DNA from: Bdellovibrionales bacterium
GTDB lineage: Bacteria > Bdellovibrionota > Bdellovibrionia > Bdellovibrionales > UBA1609
Assembly: GCA_028819545.1 (NCBI GenBank)
Contig: JAPPLG010000014.1
Coordinates: forward strand, 97,179-161,178
Direction of reading: 5' to 3'
Length of the DNA stretch: 64,000 nt
Below, piece after piece: positions 53,001 to 63,660 of the stretch (position 1 is the stretch's first letter; each line of letters begins with the position of its first letter). A program made the translations under genes and the position numbers. The notes below the pieces were generated by a model. The model did no database searches, was not told where the DNA came from, and saw only the letters and a program-made list of their open reading frames with translations.

Positions 53001-53168
53001 CCTGCGGCATATAGCCTTGGAGGTTATGATCCAATCCTTATTCCAATGACTTTATCTTTTACATGGGGATTACTCACCGGCAGTTTTTTAACTTTAATAT
53101 GGATCCCCTGCGGTTATGCCATTATTGAAGACATTATTCATTTCTTCAGAAAATTATTCCTGCGCTAG
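50082..53168 (+). CDS. RND efflux transporter, AcrB/HAE family
   Basis: 1028 aa, two large loops; FPGASSEEVEDQIT, CIGMLVDNSVVVSEN, VGLAGVTINAAIILVSFIEE. Confidence 0.95.
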   Translation: MKNFFAFFLENSKLTFVVTLALFVMGLMGFMNLRRETRPPVDFARVMITTVFPGASSEEVEDQITLKIEEEIRVVDGMKDSRSISSPGMSLLSLRIDIDNEDTLEVVDELQRALSKVRQLPSMILESPYLLHIKAKEIPILKVLVEGDNTNRKRDQLAFQLKTALERDRGVASVQFTGYKPREFKITLDPKKLQEYHVGLDEVTKAVSASMKDVSAGILRSSVKAEQVKLHTKLDTISKLEKLVVRSNFSGHKILIQDLGKVTDEEEEIPERIRFNGESVTYLQITKKEKEDSIHLSNRIKKLVKNYPAPEGYKLQVYDNEADRTQNQLSIVVKNAWVGLSLVLIVLLLLLPGWLGILSAISLPISILGAVALCASFGITFNSITMLAFIICIGMLVDNSVVVSENYARLRMDENKTPLQSALTSVMQLYKPVTATVLTTVSAFLPMLVTKGVMGQFIKWIPIVVSVALIMSLLDAFVLLPSRLQWTIRKSQNKTTRIQKYFHQITKRFEKLLSLCIRRRYVCSLVLLAITAFSISVSFWGNEFILFPKDDVRHHYIYYEAKEGASIEQTDLLAKRLVNQITQTTGADQIEGLLTQSGMQNQRFSASGGKGESTGEMFLLLKEDSKYRKKPEVLLKKLRNIDNKDFKTLRFEALGAGPPVGYAVHVIFISPDREELLSLTQDFKDQLSQIPGVIEVEDDQFSTGPEYIIEPNLTKMAQLGISPVSLGKTLQTALEGNRVGELVEKGETFYVKIYYDSHIRSNIEDLKKIKIQTQAGSLIPLEEIISLEYNPQGSSIRKRFDYQNSIEVKAKVDMAQMNSQKANALSEVIIKDLYKKYNNTSHVFQGERQHTKESMDSLFQAMVLAVFGIFIILLLLFRKFMISFLTLSSIVLGFIGVSLAFALHQKPLSFLALIGIVGLAGVTINAAIILVSFIEEMRKENPEKSLHEILVASARFRFKPIAITTFTTVLGLFPAAYSLGGYDPILIPMTLSFTWGLLTGSFLTLIWIPCGYAIIEDIIHFFRKLFLR

Positions 53169-53737
53169 AATATTTGAGGTTTAAAGTGTTTGTTATTGGT
53201 AATAGTTGCACTTTCTCCTACAACTTTGATCGTAAATAACCCTTGCTTTCTAGCATACACATCTGCACTCTGATTAATTGTTAAATAAGCCATAGCCCCG
53301 TAAATCTTGTTGCCTTTATAACTCGGAAAAAAGCATGTTAAATGCTTCAGCTTATATAAAAAATTATCTACATCTTTTGAGGACAAAGATGTCTTTACCT
53401 CTACCGCTACAATCTCTTGCCCATTTTTTGCCACAACATCCAACTCACAACGCCCCTCATATATCTTTCCGTTTTTATCTTTAGCGTTTTTTAAACCCCT
53501 AACCCTCTCACTAGTTTCCCCAACAGGAATATTTCTTTCATTAAACAGTTTAATTAAATTGCCTTCCACCAAAGCTTCAATCAAACGCCCCCATTTTCTG
53601 TCAAACTCACCACTTAGCTTGTTAATTTTCAAATCAGTTTTTTCGGACATTTCCTGCATTTTCCGATCGGTTTCACGAAAAAGCTTCCAGATTTCAGCAA
53701 TCTCACGTTCAGATGAATAAGTTTTTTGTACTGCCAT
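53165..53737 (-). CDS. PD-(D/E)XK nuclease-like protein with N-terminal coiled coil
   Basis: CELDVVAKNGQEIVAVEVKTSL (D...ExK) after a coiled-coil N-terminus. Confidence 0.7.
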   Translation of the reverse strand: MAVQKTYSSEREIAEIWKLFRETDRKMQEMSEKTDLKINKLSGEFDRKWGRLIEALVEGNLIKLFNERNIPVGETSERVRGLKNAKDKNGKIYEGRCELDVVAKNGQEIVAVEVKTSLSSKDVDNFLYKLKHLTCFFPSYKGNKIYGAMAYLTINQSADVYARKQGLFTIKVVGESATITNNKHFKPQIF

Positions 53738-53800
53738 AGTTAAACCTCCTTTATAGTTTATCGAAACTCTGAATCTTTTTCAAAGTTCTTAGAGAAATCA

Positions 53801-54122
53801 TATGCAAGTTTTACGACAGGTGTACCGCTCAAAAAAGTTGTTGGAGAATATTAGTGTACTTTTTCCAATATTTTCAGACAGTTATACTAAATATTTATTT
53901 TTAAAAATAGGTTACACAGTCATTTTACTTGATATTTGACTTCAGTCAGTGACCAAAAATGGACATTAGTGACCATTTTTGAAAAATCATAAAAGCTCTT
54001 CTAACCATTTACTAGAAAAATGAAGCCCCTACACTACTTTGTCATCATCTCCGCAACACACGCCATCTCTTTGAAGGTGGTGAACCAACTACAAAATGTA
54101 AAAATTACACAGCGTTTCTATT
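53801..54122. repeat. 322-bp perfect direct repeat, copy 1
   Basis: By-eye identical to 56550-56871, offset 2749 bp; contains hairpin CAAAAATGG/CCATTTTTG. Confidence 0.97.
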
Positions 54123-54149: not shown

Positions 54150-54596
54150 TTAAACCTTATACTGTTCTTCAGGAATTTTTTGAAACACTGCAGATAATGA
54201 TTCAGCAATTTCATTTCTTTTTTTTATATTAGAATCGCAAATAATCAAAGCATGAGCTAGATTATTCCCTGTAGGATCAGCTACAACTTTTTCTACACCT
54301 GAAATAAGTTTAATATATCGCACAGTACCTTTTATTAATCGCCAATTATTAATATTTTCATTTCCAGGTATTTCTTGAAGAGTTTTTTTGTAAGGCCTGT
54401 ATTTTGACCGATCCACTGAAATTTTATGATAACCAAAATAAAAAGCATTCCTATGTATCCGTCCATTACCCCGAATAACCTTCTTTTTACATCTCCTTAC
54501 AAGTTCTTCAGAATCATCTAAGGTCAGAGGTATGTGTTTACTAAGCCGCCTGATTATATTGAAGCTTCTCTTTACATATTTCAAGAAAATCTGCAC
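54150..54596 (-). CDS. Uncharacterised protein, gene 3 of TIGR04255-like operon
   Basis: HRNAFYFGYHKISVDRSKYRPY...VVADPTGNNLAHALI; overlaps gene 2 by 56 bp. Confidence 0.65.
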   Translation of the reverse strand: MQIFLKYVKRSFNIIRRLSKHIPLTLDDSEELVRRCKKKVIRGNGRIHRNAFYFGYHKISVDRSKYRPYKKTLQEIPGNENINNWRLIKGTVRYIKLISGVEKVVADPTGNNLAHALIICDSNIKKRNEIAESLSAVFQKIPEEQYKV

Positions 54597-55011
54597 TTTT
54601 TACTTCCTTAGGCAACTGTTTAATATTATTTTCCGTCACGGTATACTCTATTTTGTCTGCTGAATACATCCTAGCAAAAAGATGTGAGTTTTTAGCATAA
54701 TCCCACTCAAAACCTAAAATTCCGTCTGGGGCTATACAAAACTCTGGAAAATCAGAGATAGTATTTAAATTTCTTAATTCGTTAGTAAAAGAAGAAAGAA
54801 AACCTATGCTACACATTATAGATTGAGCATCCGGAACTTCTGCACCATAACTATCCCAACCTTCTTTATAGTTTCGCACTTCTTCTTGTAAATATACTAA
54901 TTCTTTAGAATAATTAAACTTAACGTTATGCTCTATGTAGGATGGTTTTACCCAACGAAAATCAGCATGTTTATAAATGCCAATAGAATCAAAAGAGTCA
55001 AGGCGTGTCAT
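54541..55011 (-). CDS. Uncharacterised protein, gene 2 of TIGR04255-like operon
   Basis: YKEGWDSYGAEVPDAQSI...PEFCIAPDGILGFEWDY; start MTRLDSF preceded by GGAGAG RBS. Confidence 0.68.
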   Translation of the reverse strand: MTRLDSFDSIGIYKHADFRWVKPSYIEHNVKFNYSKELVYLQEEVRNYKEGWDSYGAEVPDAQSIMCSIGFLSSFTNELRNLNTISDFPEFCIAPDGILGFEWDYAKNSHLFARMYSADKIEYTVTENNIKQLPKEVKSADFLEICKEKLQYNQAA

Positions 55012-55771
55012 TAATCTCTCCTTTCCAAAAATTTCTAATACTTTCTGTTGTAATATCTTCAAAGAACTGTCTTATCTTTCTATTAGCTTCATCATACCAG
55101 TCTTCACTAATGTTCTCAAAACCTTTATTATTCTTTATAGAAAGTACCAGTAAAAAAGCATCTCTATTACTCTTATTATCTTTGACTTTTTCCAATCTTA
55201 GAAACAGGGTATCTTGATCCATTGGGATTTGCAAACTGATATGTGGTGTAACAGCTTTGTAGTCTTCCGGATAAGGTGAAATAAAATTGACAGCCTTATG
55301 TAAATCCCTATCATTTTTTAAAAACTGCTTTGCACCAATTTCTAAAATATTTGAATAGTATAACTCACACATTTTTATACTTAAATTTCTATTCTTGTAG
55401 CGTCTGATGTAATCTTCTAATATCTTCCAATACTTTAAAAATTCCGGCTTTATATTTTCATACTTTGGATAGTTCACTGGCTTAACTTCTCCAGCCCTCC
55501 AGTTATAGACCATACGATCTCTTCCCAGTTGTAAGAGTTTTGTTTTATTTTCGCTATAGAACCACACTTTTTCTGGTGTAGTGATAATTTTCTCCATATT
55601 CCCTATACGCTCAATAACAGGAAAGATGTATTCTTTATTTTTAAAATTTGCCTCTACTTCAATAGCGAACTGTTGAAAATCAAGTTGTTCTATAGAGGGA
55701 TCCACTTGAAAATGAATACTTATATACATTTCATCCAAAGGAGGATTTTTATAGGTTTTACTAGATTTCAT
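54998..55771 (-). CDS. TIGR04255-like family protein
   Basis: PPLDEMYISIHFQ..., LLQLGRDRMVYNWR, VNYPKYENIKPEFLKYWKILEDYI; overlaps gene 2 by 14 bp. Confidence 0.75.
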   Translation of the reverse strand: MKSSKTYKNPPLDEMYISIHFQVDPSIEQLDFQQFAIEVEANFKNKEYIFPVIERIGNMEKIITTPEKVWFYSENKTKLLQLGRDRMVYNWRAGEVKPVNYPKYENIKPEFLKYWKILEDYIRRYKNRNLSIKMCELYYSNILEIGAKQFLKNDRDLHKAVNFISPYPEDYKAVTPHISLQIPMDQDTLFLRLEKVKDNKSNRDAFLLVLSIKNNKGFENISEDWYDEANRKIRQFFEDITTESIRNFWKGEINDTP

Positions 55772-56471: not shown

Positions 56472-56549
56472 TACATTCCTCCTTATTTATGGTTGACTTA
56501 GTTGAAGAGTCTTTCATTTTTTCCATCTTCAAAGCTCTTGAAAAAGAAG

Positions 56550-56871
56550 TATGCAAGTTTTACGACAGGTGTACCGCTCAAAAAAGTTGTTGGAGAATAT
56601 TAGTGTACTTTTTCCAATATTTTCAGACAGTTATACTAAATATTTATTTTTAAAAATAGGTTACACAGTCATTTTACTTGATATTTGACTTCAGTCAGTG
56701 ACCAAAAATGGACATTAGTGACCATTTTTGAAAAATCATAAAAGCTCTTCTAACCATTTACTAGAAAAATGAAGCCCCTACACTACTTTGTCATCATCTC
56801 CGCAACACACGCCATCTCTTTGAAGGTGGTGAACCAACTACAAAATGTAAAAATTACACAGCGTTTCTATT
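56550..56871. repeat. 322-bp perfect direct repeat, copy 2
   Basis: See 53801-54122. Confidence 0.97.
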
Positions 56872-58469: not shown

Positions 58470-58667
58470 ATGTATATTTCTAATATTGAAAAAGCTCGTT
58501 ACCCTATGTCAAAGAAAGAGACATCAAATATGCTTACACTAAGAGCAATTAAACAAGCAATATCAACAGCACAAAAAACAGGAAGAAATCAGCTTGTACA
58601 GAAACACTTAGATGATATTAAATCAAAATTTAATAAATCCAAGGTCAGAAATTGTAACATTTTGTAA
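58470..58667 (+). CDS. Small ORF, possibly chimeric, ending in duplicated sequence
   Basis: 65 aa; its last codons lie in the repeat shared with 59584-59650 but in another frame. Confidence 0.35.
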   Translation: MYISNIEKARYPMSKKETSNMLTLRAIKQAISTAQKTGRNQLVQKHLDDIKSKFNKSKVRNCNIL

Positions 58668-58704
58668 ATTTAATCAAGAAGCCCACAACTACTTTGAAGA
58701 GATA
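58638..58704 (+). repeat. Duplicate of 3' part of the 59042..59698 gene
   Basis: TCCAAGGTCAGAAATTGTAACATTTTGTAAATTTAATCAAGAAGCCCACAACTACTTTGAAGAGATA, 2 mismatches to 59584-59650. Confidence 0.9.
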
Positions 58705-58874
58705 TATGAAGTTGGCAGCGGTAGCAACTCCTAATAACTTACTCTCTTATACTAAAGTTATCTCAATATTTTTAAATTCTGAAAAAATCACAGGTTTTGG
58801 ACTTACGAACAGGTGTACTATAGTTGAAATTACACTAGAAGACTGATACAGTTAAAAAAAGATAAGGGTTTAAA

Positions 58875-59045
58875 ATGCCACAAAAAGAAAGCAAAAAAAA
58901 CGTATTATTCAATTGGTTGGCAAAAGGCACTCGAGCAGAGCCTTGGCCTCCCTCTAGTGAAATTATAGATAGTGATGAGTTTAAAAATCTCCAAAAAATT
59001 GGAAAAGAGTTAGTAGAAAAAAGTAAAAAAGAAAAAGCACAATGA
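58875..59045 (+). CDS. Small 56-aa protein upstream of membrane protein (not in the ORF track)
   Basis: MPQKESKKNVLFNWLAKGTRAEPWPPSSEIIDSDEFKNLQKIGKELVEKSKKEKAQ*; ATGA overlap with next gene. Confidence 0.5.
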   Translation: MPQKESKKNVLFNWLAKGTRAEPWPPSSEIIDSDEFKNLQKIGKELVEKSKKEKAQ

Positions 59046-59698
59046 CGTTTGATCAACTTGAAAGCTTCCTATGGGTTATCCCAGGGGTTGCGTGGATTTA
59101 CTATTATAATACCTTCACTCCACATAAAAAAATTACAATTTCAGGGTGGCCTTATTTATTTACTATTGTCATTATTGCTTCTATACTAAAGCTCCCTGAT
59201 ACTTTTTTAAATATTGATTTACTCACAGAACAACAAGAACATTTAAAAAAGTTTATGTGGTTATTTAAAATTATACTCTATATCTTCCTTCTTTGGCTTC
59301 CCAAAATTGAGTGGATTAAACAATTCTTGCCTCAAATAGAAGATAATTTTTACGATAAGTGCACTAAATGGCATAAAAAAGCTGTTTTGTTGACTTTAAA
59401 AAATGGAAAAGTATATGTCGGTGTTTTATCAAAGTATCCAGACAACCCGAATTTAAGGTATGAATCTCAGACAATTTTTATCATTCCATCTTTCAGTGGA
59501 TATAGAGAACAAGAGAAAAAACGTATTGAGTGGACTACACATTACCCAACAGGAACACCCTACGCTGACATGGAACTTATCATTCCAAGATCAGAAATTG
59601 TAACATTTTGTAAATTTAATCAGGAAGCCCACAACTACTTTGAAGAGATAAAAGAATTCAACAAAAAATACCCATACCGCTCCACAATGACACCTTAA
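59042..59698 (+). CDS. Membrane protein with soluble C-terminal domain, DUF6338-like
   Basis: N-terminal TM helices; C-terminal AVLLTLKNGKVYVGVLSKYPDN...ADMELIIPRSEIVTFC. Confidence 0.55.
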   Translation: MTFDQLESFLWVIPGVAWIYYYNTFTPHKKITISGWPYLFTIVIIASILKLPDTFLNIDLLTEQQEHLKKFMWLFKIILYIFLLWLPKIEWIKQFLPQIEDNFYDKCTKWHKKAVLLTLKNGKVYVGVLSKYPDNPNLRYESQTIFIIPSFSGYREQEKKRIEWTTHYPTGTPYADMELIIPRSEIVTFCKFNQEAHNYFEEIKEFNKKYPYRSTMTP

Positions 59699-59779: not shown

Positions 59780-60874
59780 TTAGCTCTTTTTTACCAAACA
59801 ATAAAATTTTTGATTGGTTTTACCTCTAGGCTCTACAATTCTTTTATCGATCATATCTTTTAAGTCTCTTTGTAACGTTCTTTTTGTTATTTTACCTGAT
59901 GTCTTTCTTTTTAAATTTTTATCTAATCTCTCAAACTTAGAAAAAAGTTTATCAAAATCTTTTGGCAACAGTCTGCCATTTTCTAAAATATACTCAAAAA
60001 TGACCCCTTGTCTTTTAGATAAACTATGATTTTGTATTAAAGCATCTTTCAAAATAACTTTTTTTCCAATGTCCATAACTTCATTCATTTGGAATAAGAA
60101 TCCTTTAACAAAATATTCAAGCCAGACAGTCATATCCATCTTGTTATTTCTTACAGCTTGAATAGTCTTATAAAAGTTTTTTCTATCTTTGTCATAGTAT
60201 TGACTGATTGAGAAAAGCTTCTTAAAGTCATAATCTTCTTTATAAAGATAAGCTGTGCAAAGAAGTCGAGAAGTTCTTCCATTACCATCCATAAAGGGAT
60301 GAATATGAACAAGCTGAAATTGTATAATACTGCTTTTTAAAACAGGATGAATATCTGATTTCTGATTGATCCATCGGACAAAATTTTTCATAAGAGTAGG
60401 AACTTCATTTGGTTTAGGAGGTATGTATACAACTTCTTTTGTAACAGCATTTCCTACATAGTTTTGTATCTTTCGATAACTTCCCGGCTTGGCACTTCCT
60501 CCACGAACACCTTTAACTAACTCTTTATGAATACTTTTAATAAGAGTTTCTGTAATGCTCTTTTTTTCTTTTAAATGTTTTGAAACCAAATTAAAAGCAT
60601 CTCTATAGTTTTTTATCTCTTTTATATCTTCCTCATTGACGCCAGATATTTTTTGGCCAGCTAAAATCTTTCGGGACTGCTCAAAGGTAAGCTGTGTTCC
60701 TTCTATATGAGTCGTATGATGCGTTTCTAAAAGAAAGGCATTTTTGCTCATATTTTGTATCCATTGGTTTGATAAATGAGCCGCTTTTAAAAACCCTCTA
60801 GCCTGCTCAATCTCCATCAATTGATTGAGTAGAGACCTGGTAATTTTAAATTTTGGAGAAAAATTATTTTCCAT
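59780..60874 (-). CDS. Fic family protein
   Basis: HPFMDGNGRTSR core; N-terminal TTHIEG matches class II inhibitory motif (S/T)xxxE(G/N). Confidence 0.93.
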   Translation of the reverse strand: MENNFSPKFKITRSLLNQLMEIEQARGFLKAAHLSNQWIQNMSKNAFLLETHHTTHIEGTQLTFEQSRKILAGQKISGVNEEDIKEIKNYRDAFNLVSKHLKEKKSITETLIKSIHKELVKGVRGGSAKPGSYRKIQNYVGNAVTKEVVYIPPKPNEVPTLMKNFVRWINQKSDIHPVLKSSIIQFQLVHIHPFMDGNGRTSRLLCTAYLYKEDYDFKKLFSISQYYDKDRKNFYKTIQAVRNNKMDMTVWLEYFVKGFLFQMNEVMDIGKKVILKDALIQNHSLSKRQGVIFEYILENGRLLPKDFDKLFSKFERLDKNLKRKTSGKITKRTLQRDLKDMIDKRIVEPRGKTNQKFYCLVKKS

Positions 60875-61029
60875 TTTATTTTCATACCTTTCTGTTTTCT
60901 GTCCAATTAAAAATATCACATTTCAACAAACATTGGTATTAGTTTGTTTCATAAATTATAATTGCAGTTTGTTATATTTTCATGATACTCTCTTATCTCG
61001 AAAACAGATTTAGTTTTATGGAGGTTGAA

Positions 61030-62509: not shown

Positions 62510-62848
62510 TTAAATTGAATTTTTAAGGTATTTTCTAATTCTTTCAGCATCTTCATTTTCTTTATTTCCCTTAAAATACACCTCAATAAATTGAATTTTT
62601 TTATCTTTTGGAAAGTAAGCATAGACAATTCTTAAGGAAGATCCCTTTAAGTATTTACAAAAAAACCTGGCCTTAACAACATACAGATCATCCATTTTCC
62701 GGATAATTGAAAAGTGTTTTTTATTTCCTAAAGGAGATACAGAAATTACTTTTTGAAACTCTGTTAAATCTTCTGAAAGAGATCTATATCTTTTTTTCAG
62801 TTTTTTAAATTCTCTTTGAAAAATTGGCAGTTCATCAAATCGGATCAT
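62510..62848 (-). CDS. RelE-superfamily toxin-like protein
   Basis: FQREFKKLKKRYRSL...LRIVYAYFPKDKKIQFIEVYFKGNKENEDAERIRKYL. Confidence 0.8.
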   Translation of the reverse strand: MIRFDELPIFQREFKKLKKRYRSLSEDLTEFQKVISVSPLGNKKHFSIIRKMDDLYVVKARFFCKYLKGSSLRIVYAYFPKDKKIQFIEVYFKGNKENEDAERIRKYLKNSI

Positions 62849-63602
62849 TATAATTTCTTACTGAATATTTTTCATCACGATAAAAGACACTTTCATAAGA
62901 GAGAACTTCTCCGTCTTTTGCAGATTTCCAAGGAATATCTTCATGAGAATATTTTTCTATTTCCAAAGCATTTTTGTCAGATAGACGAGCTAATACATCA
63001 TCAATATGTTCAACCTCTTGTGCAGATAATATCTCCAGATTAGGGCGTTTATGAGCTAAATATTTTTTTTGCCTATACTTAAAATATTGACTCTTTACAG
63101 CCTCTAAGTCTCCCTGTTTTTGCATTTTTTTAATAATAGAGCTTAATGCAACTGAAGTGGGTCCATGGTGATTTTTAATATACACAGCACCCATTAGATT
63201 TTCTTCGTATTTTTCAAAATAATCAAAATCAATGAAATAAAGCAATTTATGTAAAACTGTTTCACCAATATTAGGTTTTCCCCCCACTTTATTTAAGATA
63301 TAGAGAAGAACTTGTTTAAATTTTTCAAGATTTTCTTCTGTTACACGTATTTGTAAAGGATGAGTTTTTTTAACTTTTTTCTGTTTAATTTTTACAACTA
63401 TTTTAGCATCCTTCTCTACAAGCAAATTTTCTATAGAGATGCCAAAAATACCAGCTATCTTTTTTGCTTCAGAAATGGTTGGTTCTCGTCCTCCACTTTC
63501 AATTTGCATATATGTTGGACGGGAAATACCCAATTCACCTGCCAGGTACTCCTGTGTCATCCCCTTTTTCATACGCTGTTTCCGAATAAATTTATAAAGC
63601 AT
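62835..63602 (-). CDS. XRE HTH plus Panacea (DUF4065)-like antitoxin
   Basis: HTH MTQEYLAGELGISRPTYMQIESGGREPT; TVLHKLLYFIDFDYFEKYEENLMGAVYIKNHHGPTS; 14-bp overlap with toxin; GGAGG RBS at start 63602. Confidence 0.85.
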   Translation of the reverse strand: MLYKFIRKQRMKKGMTQEYLAGELGISRPTYMQIESGGREPTISEAKKIAGIFGISIENLLVEKDAKIVVKIKQKKVKKTHPLQIRVTEENLEKFKQVLLYILNKVGGKPNIGETVLHKLLYFIDFDYFEKYEENLMGAVYIKNHHGPTSVALSSIIKKMQKQGDLEAVKSQYFKYRQKKYLAHKRPNLEILSAQEVEHIDDVLARLSDKNALEIEKYSHEDIPWKSAKDGEVLSYESVFYRDEKYSVRNYNDPI

Positions 63603-63660
63603 AATACCTCCATGCAATGCTATATAAGTTTTATTGAATTCTACAAATGTAAAGATTTCT

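What the first reader, a model, noticed from the sequence alone, without database searches (positions are those of the whole stretch)
54150..55771. Compact overlapping three-gene operon with a TIGR04255-like protein: best candidate for an undescribed system
Sequence shows three minus-strand genes overlapping head to tail (14 bp and 56 bp), so they are probably co-translated. Gene 1 has features I associate with TIGR04255 (PPLxE near the N-terminus, LQxxxxRxxxNWR, YPxYExxxxxF). Gene 2 has GWDSYGA and PDGxxxFEW; gene 3 has HxxAFxF, SVDRSKYR and DPTxNxxHA. TIGR04255 proteins are sporadically distributed and functionally unassigned as far as I know. That the trio is a defence, toxin or sensing module is inference.
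Basis: partly seen in the sequence, partly recalled or inferred. Interest (0 to 1): 0.75.

Follow-up and report, generated by a model that had tools for sequence, protein, structure and literature searches.

The report
Three-gene toxin–antitoxin-like module with TIGR04255
Three tightly joined bacterial genes form a module that recurs across distant bacteria, usually among anti-virus genes; its first gene belongs to a family with no assigned function, which this survey finds plugged into many different toxin–antitoxin pairs, so it is probably a trigger or holding part of a self-arrest defence switch.

Summary
Gene 1 is TIGR04255 (59.9 bits, cut-off 30). Genes 2 and 3 match no curated family, but profiles built without the window recover them (E=1e-7 and 6e-8; next decoy above 2). 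The same order, g1-g2-g3, occurs in several distant phyla, including on a Mycobacterium plasmid. Ten neighbourhoods outside the window are rich in defence genes.

Of about 80 TIGR04255 loci read in three phyla, most are the first gene of a three-gene operon. The third gene is swapped between PIN, PemK/MazF, HicA-like, HEPN, HNH, DUF7689, a "T/S-x-x-C-D-L" family or the window's g3; a Vibrio plasmid has zeta toxin. In one natural swap the TIGR04255 proteins stay 82-85% identical while the toxin is replaced, together with only the C-terminal part of the middle protein. The g2-g3 pair recurs without TIGR04255 in PADLOC's untested candidate PDC-M32.

Best reading: a tripartite toxin–antitoxin-like switch, TIGR04255 sensor/holder – antitoxin/adaptor – toxin. 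The g3 model resembles ADP-ribosyltransferase-fold enzymes (KptA; weak), with conserved Arg-Ser-His. It works like TAC/CmdTAC, but TIGR04255 shows no profile similarity to SecB. No open paper held here mentions TIGR04255. Function, trigger and toxicity are untested.

The parts
54998..55771 (-). g1: TIGR04255 family protein, 257 aa; proposed sensor/holder subunit
   Evidence: NCBIfam TIGR04255 59.9 bits, cut-off 30; AF2 pLDDT 86, alpha/beta fold without a convincing PDB match
54541..55011 (-). g2: 156-aa middle protein; proposed antitoxin/adaptor. Conserved domain GWDxYGA...PDGxxxFEW
   Evidence: leave-out profile E=9.9e-8; kin (L047 g2) match the C-terminal part of PADLOC PDC-M32A, E=5.8e-10
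54150..54596 (-). g3: 148-aa protein; proposed toxin/effector, predicted ADP-ribosyltransferase-like fold; conserved R34, S60, H115
   Evidence: leave-out profile E=6.4e-8; kin (L045 g3) match PDC-M32B, E=5.8e-5; AF2 of the L047 homologue pLDDT 89, best PDB match KptA, prob 0.96, E=0.053; conservation
55016..55023 (-). Shine-Dalgarno-like AAGGAGAG of g2, inside g1
   Evidence: read from sequence
54603..54609 (-). Shine-Dalgarno-like AAGGAAG of g3, inside g2
   Evidence: read from sequence

Best explanation
The trio is a tripartite toxin-antitoxin-like module. g3 is the toxin, probably an enzyme with an ADP-ribosyltransferase-like (KptA-like) fold. g2 is its antitoxin/adaptor: its conserved domain goes with g3, and its N-terminal part docks on g1. 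g1 (TIGR04255) is a separate, interchangeable sensor or holder that keeps the g2-g3 complex silent until it meets a trigger, probably a phage product. Then g2 is released or degraded and g3 stops growth (abortive infection). Shown: gene order, conservation, swapping of toxins behind TIGR04255, swapping of the front part before g2-g3, and defence-island context at related loci. Inferred: physical complex, antitoxin role of g2, toxicity and chemistry of g3, phage trigger.
For: (1) TIGR04255 confirmed. (2) The same trio in order occurs on a Mycobacterium plasmid next to mobF, in about 10 of 18 MAG loci across Planctomycetota, Acidobacteria, Desulfobacterota, Eisenbacteria, Neomarinimicrobiota and others, and in about 21 of 80 TIGR04255 loci in three phylum samples. 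(3) In sister operons the third gene is a known toxin or nuclease class: PIN E=1e-11 and 7e-10, PemK/MazF 2e-13, HNH 9e-5, HicA 3e-4, HEPN 4e-3, zeta toxin 3e-12; the middle gene is often joined by a 4-nt overlap. (4) Natural toxin swap, L069 against L071/L072: g1 82-85% identical; middle protein residues 1-82 48-57% identical, but its C-terminal part near shuffled level; third proteins unrelated. (5) g2-g3 without TIGR04255: PDC-M32A = another N-terminal domain + g2-type domain, PDC-M32B = g3. (6) Neighbours of ten trio loci hit 270 PADLOC families (type I R-M, Zorya ZorD, DpdE, RmrA, capP/capH) against 24 in equal-sized control sets. (7) g3 model: best PDB match KptA; Tne2, AvrPphF and DarT also in the top 20; R 23/26, S 26/26, H 26/26 conserved on three strands.
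Against: No experiment. The g3-KptA fold match is weak (E=0.05, TM 0.5), no profile similarity to KptA or RES was found, and the fold was modelled on a homologue (L047), not on window g3. g2 has no recognisable antitoxin domain. Some actinobacterial TIGR04255 genes appear to stand alone (L151-L154, L159, L163, L173), so the family is not exclusively tripartite. The closest g1 in the window's phylum (L021/L043) has downstream genes that the g2/g3 leave-out profiles do not recognise. Control regions came from four of the ten genomes only, and PADLOC family counts are redundant. The trio was not found in phages or viral contigs.
Confidence: 0.6

Rival explanations
1. A defence complex that is not toxin-antitoxin: g1 senses phage, g2 and g3 together form the effector; no part is toxic alone and none is a classical antitoxin.
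For: Defence-island context; candidate status of PDC-M32; g2 is as conserved as g3 and has no antitoxin-like domain.
Against: In sister operons the third gene belongs to classical toxin families, with antitoxin-like (HicB-like, VapB-tail-like by eye) middle genes.
Confidence: 0.22
2. A stress- or plasmid-maintenance addiction module with no role against phages.
For: Occurs on plasmids (Mycobacterium; Vibrio with zeta toxin); not seen in phages or viral contigs.
Against: Most copies found lie in genome assemblies, and the neighbourhoods examined are rich in defence genes.
Confidence: 0.12
3. g3 is not an ADP-ribosyltransferase-like enzyme but another small toxin (for example an RNA-binding protein or nuclease); the rest of the best explanation stands.
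For: Foldseek E-values all above 0.05; KH-domain hits also listed; HHalign to KptA and RES is null.
Against: The three best hits, and most of the top 20, are ADP-ribosyltransferase-related folds; Arg-Ser-His fall on three strands as in that fold.
Confidence: 0.45
4. An ordinary metabolic or regulatory operon with chance neighbours.
For: No function is known for any of the three families.
Against: Sporadic distribution (20/369, 32/395, 31/397 genomes), toxin swapping and defence context.
Confidence: 0.05

Closest known systems
TIGR04255 (NCBIfam 'sporadTIGR04255')
   Same: g1 is a member (59.9 bits, cut-off 30)
   Different: the family model says nothing of function; that it heads swappable toxin modules comes from this survey
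PADLOC PDC-M32 (phage defence candidate; A+B)
   Same: g3 kin match PDC-M32B and g2 kin match the C-terminal part of PDC-M32A; two-part module
   Different: PDC-M32A carries another N-terminal domain fused to the g2 domain, whereas here a separate TIGR04255 gene stands in front; window proteins themselves do not reach the models. Found named in one open paper only, as an annotation (PMC12429752)
TAC (toxin-antitoxin-chaperone) systems, in particular CmdTAC (PMC11618068) and M. tuberculosis TAC (PMC6377645)
   Same: three-gene logic: toxin, antitoxin with an extra segment that docks on a third protein; CmdT is an ADP-ribosyltransferase and CmdC senses phage capsid protein
   Different: the third protein is SecB-like in TAC; TIGR04255 has no profile similarity to SecB and no SecB among its 50 best fold matches; the gene order differs; the proposed docking segment is N-terminal in the middle protein, not C-terminal as in M. 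tuberculosis TAC
Classical type II toxin-antitoxin pairs (VapBC, MazEF/PemIK, HicAB)
   Same: the same toxin families occur as third genes behind TIGR04255
   Different: middle proteins are longer (about 83-245 aa, mostly above 120) and a TIGR04255 gene precedes them
KptA/Tpt1 and other ADP-ribosyltransferase-fold enzymes
   Same: best fold match of the g3 model
   Different: no detectable sequence or profile similarity

Membership tests
TIGR04255 | score above curated cut-off 30 over the full model | tested here: met
   59.9 bits, profile 2-252 of 252
PADLOC PDC-M32 | PDC-M32A-type protein: N-terminal domain plus g2-type domain in one chain | tested here: not met
   window g1 and g2 give no hit; kin of g2 match only about positions 257-365 of 375; positions 4-248 are matched by a different protein (L055)
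PADLOC PDC-M32 | PDC-M32B-type protein | tested here: inconclusive
   window g3 no direct hit; L045 g3 hits at 5.8e-5; window g3 is in the same family by leave-out profile
TAC / CmdTAC | SecB-like chaperone as third component | tested here: not met
   HHalign TIGR04255 vs SecB prob 0.1-0.2; positive control 99.3; no SecB in the 50 best fold matches
TAC / CmdTAC | antitoxin with a segment that docks on the third component | tested here: inconclusive
   the N-terminal part of the middle protein follows TIGR04255 in a natural swap; binding not testable here
type II toxin-antitoxin system | toxin toxic alone and neutralised by its partner | not testable with these tools
   needs expression experiments
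type II toxin-antitoxin system | toxin-position gene directly joined to a small partner gene in one apparent operon | tested here: met
   toxin families in sister operons
ADP-ribosyltransferase fold | fold | tested here: inconclusive
   Foldseek KptA prob 0.96, TM 0.50, E=0.053, on homologue L047
ADP-ribosyltransferase fold | sequence/profile similarity to a known member | tested here: not met
   HHalign vs KptA and RES null
ADP-ribosyltransferase fold | catalytic triad on three strands | tested here: inconclusive
   R 23/26, S 26/26, H 26/26 at L047 positions 22, 53 and 102, all on strands; 3D proximity could not be measured

The most novel reading that the evidence does not exclude
TIGR04255 is a general plug-in sensor for bacterial self-arrest modules: one family that controls at least eight unrelated toxin or effector classes through a docking segment on the antitoxin, like a second, SecB-independent TAC principle; and g3 founds a new ADP-ribosyltransferase-type toxin family.
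Probability: 0.4. Interest if true: 0.82.

Novelty: new variant of a known kind. Interest (0 to 1): 0.63.

Why it matters
TIGR04255 occurs in roughly 5-8% of the genomes sampled in three phyla and no paper in a library of 5.4 million open papers mentions it by name. If it is a shared sensor or holder for many toxins, it gives a handle on how one recognition part is reused with different killing parts in bacterial immunity, and a search key for undescribed toxins (g3, DUF7689, the C-D-L family). It also gives the untested candidate PDC-M32 a concrete, testable mechanism.

Tried and rejected
Chance ORFs: rejected by leave-out profiles and cross-phylum conservation. Phage-borne module: no match in phage records or viral contigs. 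Plasmid searches with window g2 and g3 alone: none. SecB-type TAC: TIGR04255 is not SecB by profile. RES toxin or KptA homology of g3: null by profile. Reading a function from the g1 fold: AdoMetDC/prozyme and TBP-like hits have TM below 0.32 and large rmsd, so not used. g1 and g3 against PDB sequences: nothing. Rfam: nothing convincing near the trio. Promoter and terminator scans near the trio: not above chance. Viral fold library for g3: weak, mostly uncharacterised hits.

Full report
OBSERVATION. The three minus-strand genes exist as described. g1 54998-55771 encodes 257 aa, g2 54541-55011 encodes 156 aa from ATG 55011, g3 54150-54596 encodes 148 aa from GTG. Overlaps are 14 and 56 nt. Both downstream genes have a Shine-Dalgarno-like site inside the preceding gene. 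g1 is TIGR04255 with 59.9 bits against a cut-off of 30. g2 and g3 match nothing in Pfam, NCBIfam or PADLOC and only noise in PHROGs.

WHERE IT IS. The window lies in a 1.45-Mb assembly of 35 contigs that has one TIGR04255 gene. A same-phylum genome (G303, locus L021) carries a g1 identical to that of an 'Oligoflexia bacterium' MAG (L043), so the phylum is probably Bdellovibrionota (inference).

CONSERVATION OF THE TRIO. A Mycobacterium paragordonae plasmid carries TIGR04255 + 180 aa (14-nt overlap) + 142 aa, next to a MobF relaxase. A genome scan with the window-type g1 gave 18 loci in Planctomycetota, Acidobacteria, Desulfobacterota, Eisenbacteria, Neomarinimicrobiota, Actinomycetota, Cyanobacteria and others; about ten have g2- and g3-like genes in the same order (partly by eye). 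Phylum samples gave TIGR04255 in 20 of 369 genomes (window's phylum), 32 of 395 (Desulfobacterota sample) and 31 of 397 (Actinomycetota sample). Profiles or BLAST clusters found g2 and g3 together in 9-10, 7 and 4 loci of these samples. Profiles built without the window score window g2 at E=9.9e-8 and window g3 at 6.4e-8 among 774 ORFs; the next decoy is above 2.

SWAPPING BEHIND TIGR04255. Most other TIGR04255 loci have the same layout, TIGR04255 - middle gene - third gene, often with 4-nt overlaps. The third gene is a PIN protein (L017, L068, L075, L084, L089), PemK/MazF-like (L071, L072), HicA-like with a HicB-like middle gene by eye (L087, L090, L166), HEPN (L066, L077, L083, L088, L150, L169, also L050), HNH (L016, L030, L031), DUF7689 (L070, L073, L074, L085, L174), or a family with a T/S-x-x-C-D-L-like motif (about 18-20 loci, classified by BLAST and by eye). 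A Vibrio plasmid has zeta toxin (L035). Pfam support for representatives: PIN 9.8e-12 and 6.6e-10, PemK 2.2e-13, zeta 3.1e-12, DUF7689 1.4e-40, HNH 8.6e-5, HicA 3.4e-4 (below its cut-off), HEPN 4e-3 (below cut-off). Some actinobacterial copies seem to stand alone.

A NATURAL SWAP. L069 and L071/L072 have TIGR04255 proteins 82-85% identical. Their middle proteins are 48-57% identical over residues 1-82, but near shuffled level afterwards, and the third proteins are unrelated (C-D-L family versus PemK). L071 and L072, which share the toxin, are 86% identical in that C-terminal part. The simplest reading is that the N-terminal part of the middle protein follows TIGR04255 and the C-terminal part follows the toxin.

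SWAPPING IN FRONT OF g2-g3. PADLOC's candidate PDC-M32 consists of PDC-M32B, matched by g3 kin (L045 E=5.8e-5), and PDC-M32A, whose C-terminal part is matched by g2 kin (L047 E=5.8e-10). The N-terminal 250 residues of PDC-M32A are another domain, which in a planctomycete (L055) is followed by a PIN-like sequence by eye. So g2-g3 is a unit that can take a different front part. PDC-M32 appears in one open paper, as an annotation in Sinorhizobium prophages (PMC12429752).

CONTEXT. Proteins within about 8 kb of ten trio loci (116 proteins, trio genes left out) hit 270 PADLOC families at E below 1e-5, including type I restriction-modification, Zorya ZorD, DpdE, RmrA and capP/capH; 116 proteins from control regions hit 24. 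Counts of families are redundant and the controls come from four of the genomes, so this is a strong indication, not a measured enrichment. In the window itself a SoFic-type Fic protein (59780-60919) and a Panacea-domain protein (62835-63617) lie nearby.

STRUCTURES. g3 (homologue L047, 11-row alignment) is modelled with pLDDT 89. Its best PDB matches are KptA/Tpt1 (prob 0.96, TM 0.50, E=0.053), and Tne2, AvrPphF and DarT are also in the top 20, all ADP-ribosyltransferase-related folds by my own knowledge. Arg (23/26), Ser (26/26) and His (26/26) are conserved, all on strands; in the window they are R34, S60 and H115. Profile comparison with KptA and RES is null. I treat the fold as possible to probable, not shown. 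g1 is modelled with pLDDT 86 as an alpha/beta protein without a trustworthy PDB match.

MECHANISM. Best reading: TIGR04255 holds or senses, g2 links and neutralises, g3 poisons. The nearest characterised logic is TAC, especially CmdTAC, where a SecB-like chaperone releases the antitoxin when it meets phage capsid protein and frees an ADP-ribosyltransferase toxin (PMC11618068). This is a similarity of logic, not membership: TIGR04255 is not SecB by profile. Complex formation, toxicity, chemistry and trigger are untested.

NOVELTY. No paper in the library held here names TIGR04255 (preprints and most subscription papers are not covered). g2-g3 kin were flagged as a candidate before. The new points are the TIGR04255-headed tripartite form, the range of toxins behind TIGR04255, and the predicted fold of g3.

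Noticed in passing
window 53779-54078 and 56528-56827: A 300-nt direct repeat (97% identical) flanks the trio plus a 109-aa gene; each copy ends about 40-60 nt upstream of a minus-strand gene. Only two full copies in the genome, with weak partial matches on contigs C3, C10 and C28. Looks like a duplication or recombination boundary of a cassette.
   Followed up: partly
window 53165-53737 (-): 190-aa protein with weak PD-(D/E)XK nuclease matches (Card1-like, PDDEXK_10, YraN; E about 1e-3), just downstream of the trio.
   Followed up: no
window 59780-60919 (-): SoFic-type Fic protein (PADLOC SoFic E=2e-64), a known anti-phage candidate near the trio.
   Followed up: no
window 62835-63617 (-): HTH + SocA/Panacea domain protein (PF13274 E=3.5e-16), a typical antitoxin architecture; its partner was not looked for.
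   Followed up: no
window 58633-58710 and 59579-59656: 78-nt direct repeat (92%): a remnant copy of the C-terminal part of the 218-aa gene 59042-59698, which has a weak LSM-like match.
   Followed up: no
L013, L020, L038, L049, L069, L086, L091, L148, L155, L156, L158, L160, L161, L165, L168, L170-L172: Uncharacterised third-gene family with a T/S-x-x-C-D-L-like motif, often behind an HTH-containing middle gene; the most frequent partner of TIGR04255 in Actinomycetota and a candidate new toxin.
   Followed up: partly
L070, L073, L074, L085, L174: DUF7689 (PF24738) proteins as third gene behind TIGR04255 with a conserved middle gene; suggests that DUF7689 is a toxin or effector.
   Followed up: partly
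L069 versus L071/L072: Very similar TIGR04255 genes with different toxins; the middle protein is chimeric at about residue 82.
   Followed up: yes
L151-L154, L159, L163, L173: TIGR04255 genes in Actinomycetota that appear to stand alone, with no coupled downstream gene.
   Followed up: no
L033 (NZ_CP025547.1): Trio on a Mycobacterium paragordonae plasmid directly behind a MobF relaxase gene and near a type IV coupling protein gene: carried on a plasmid with transfer genes.
   Followed up: no
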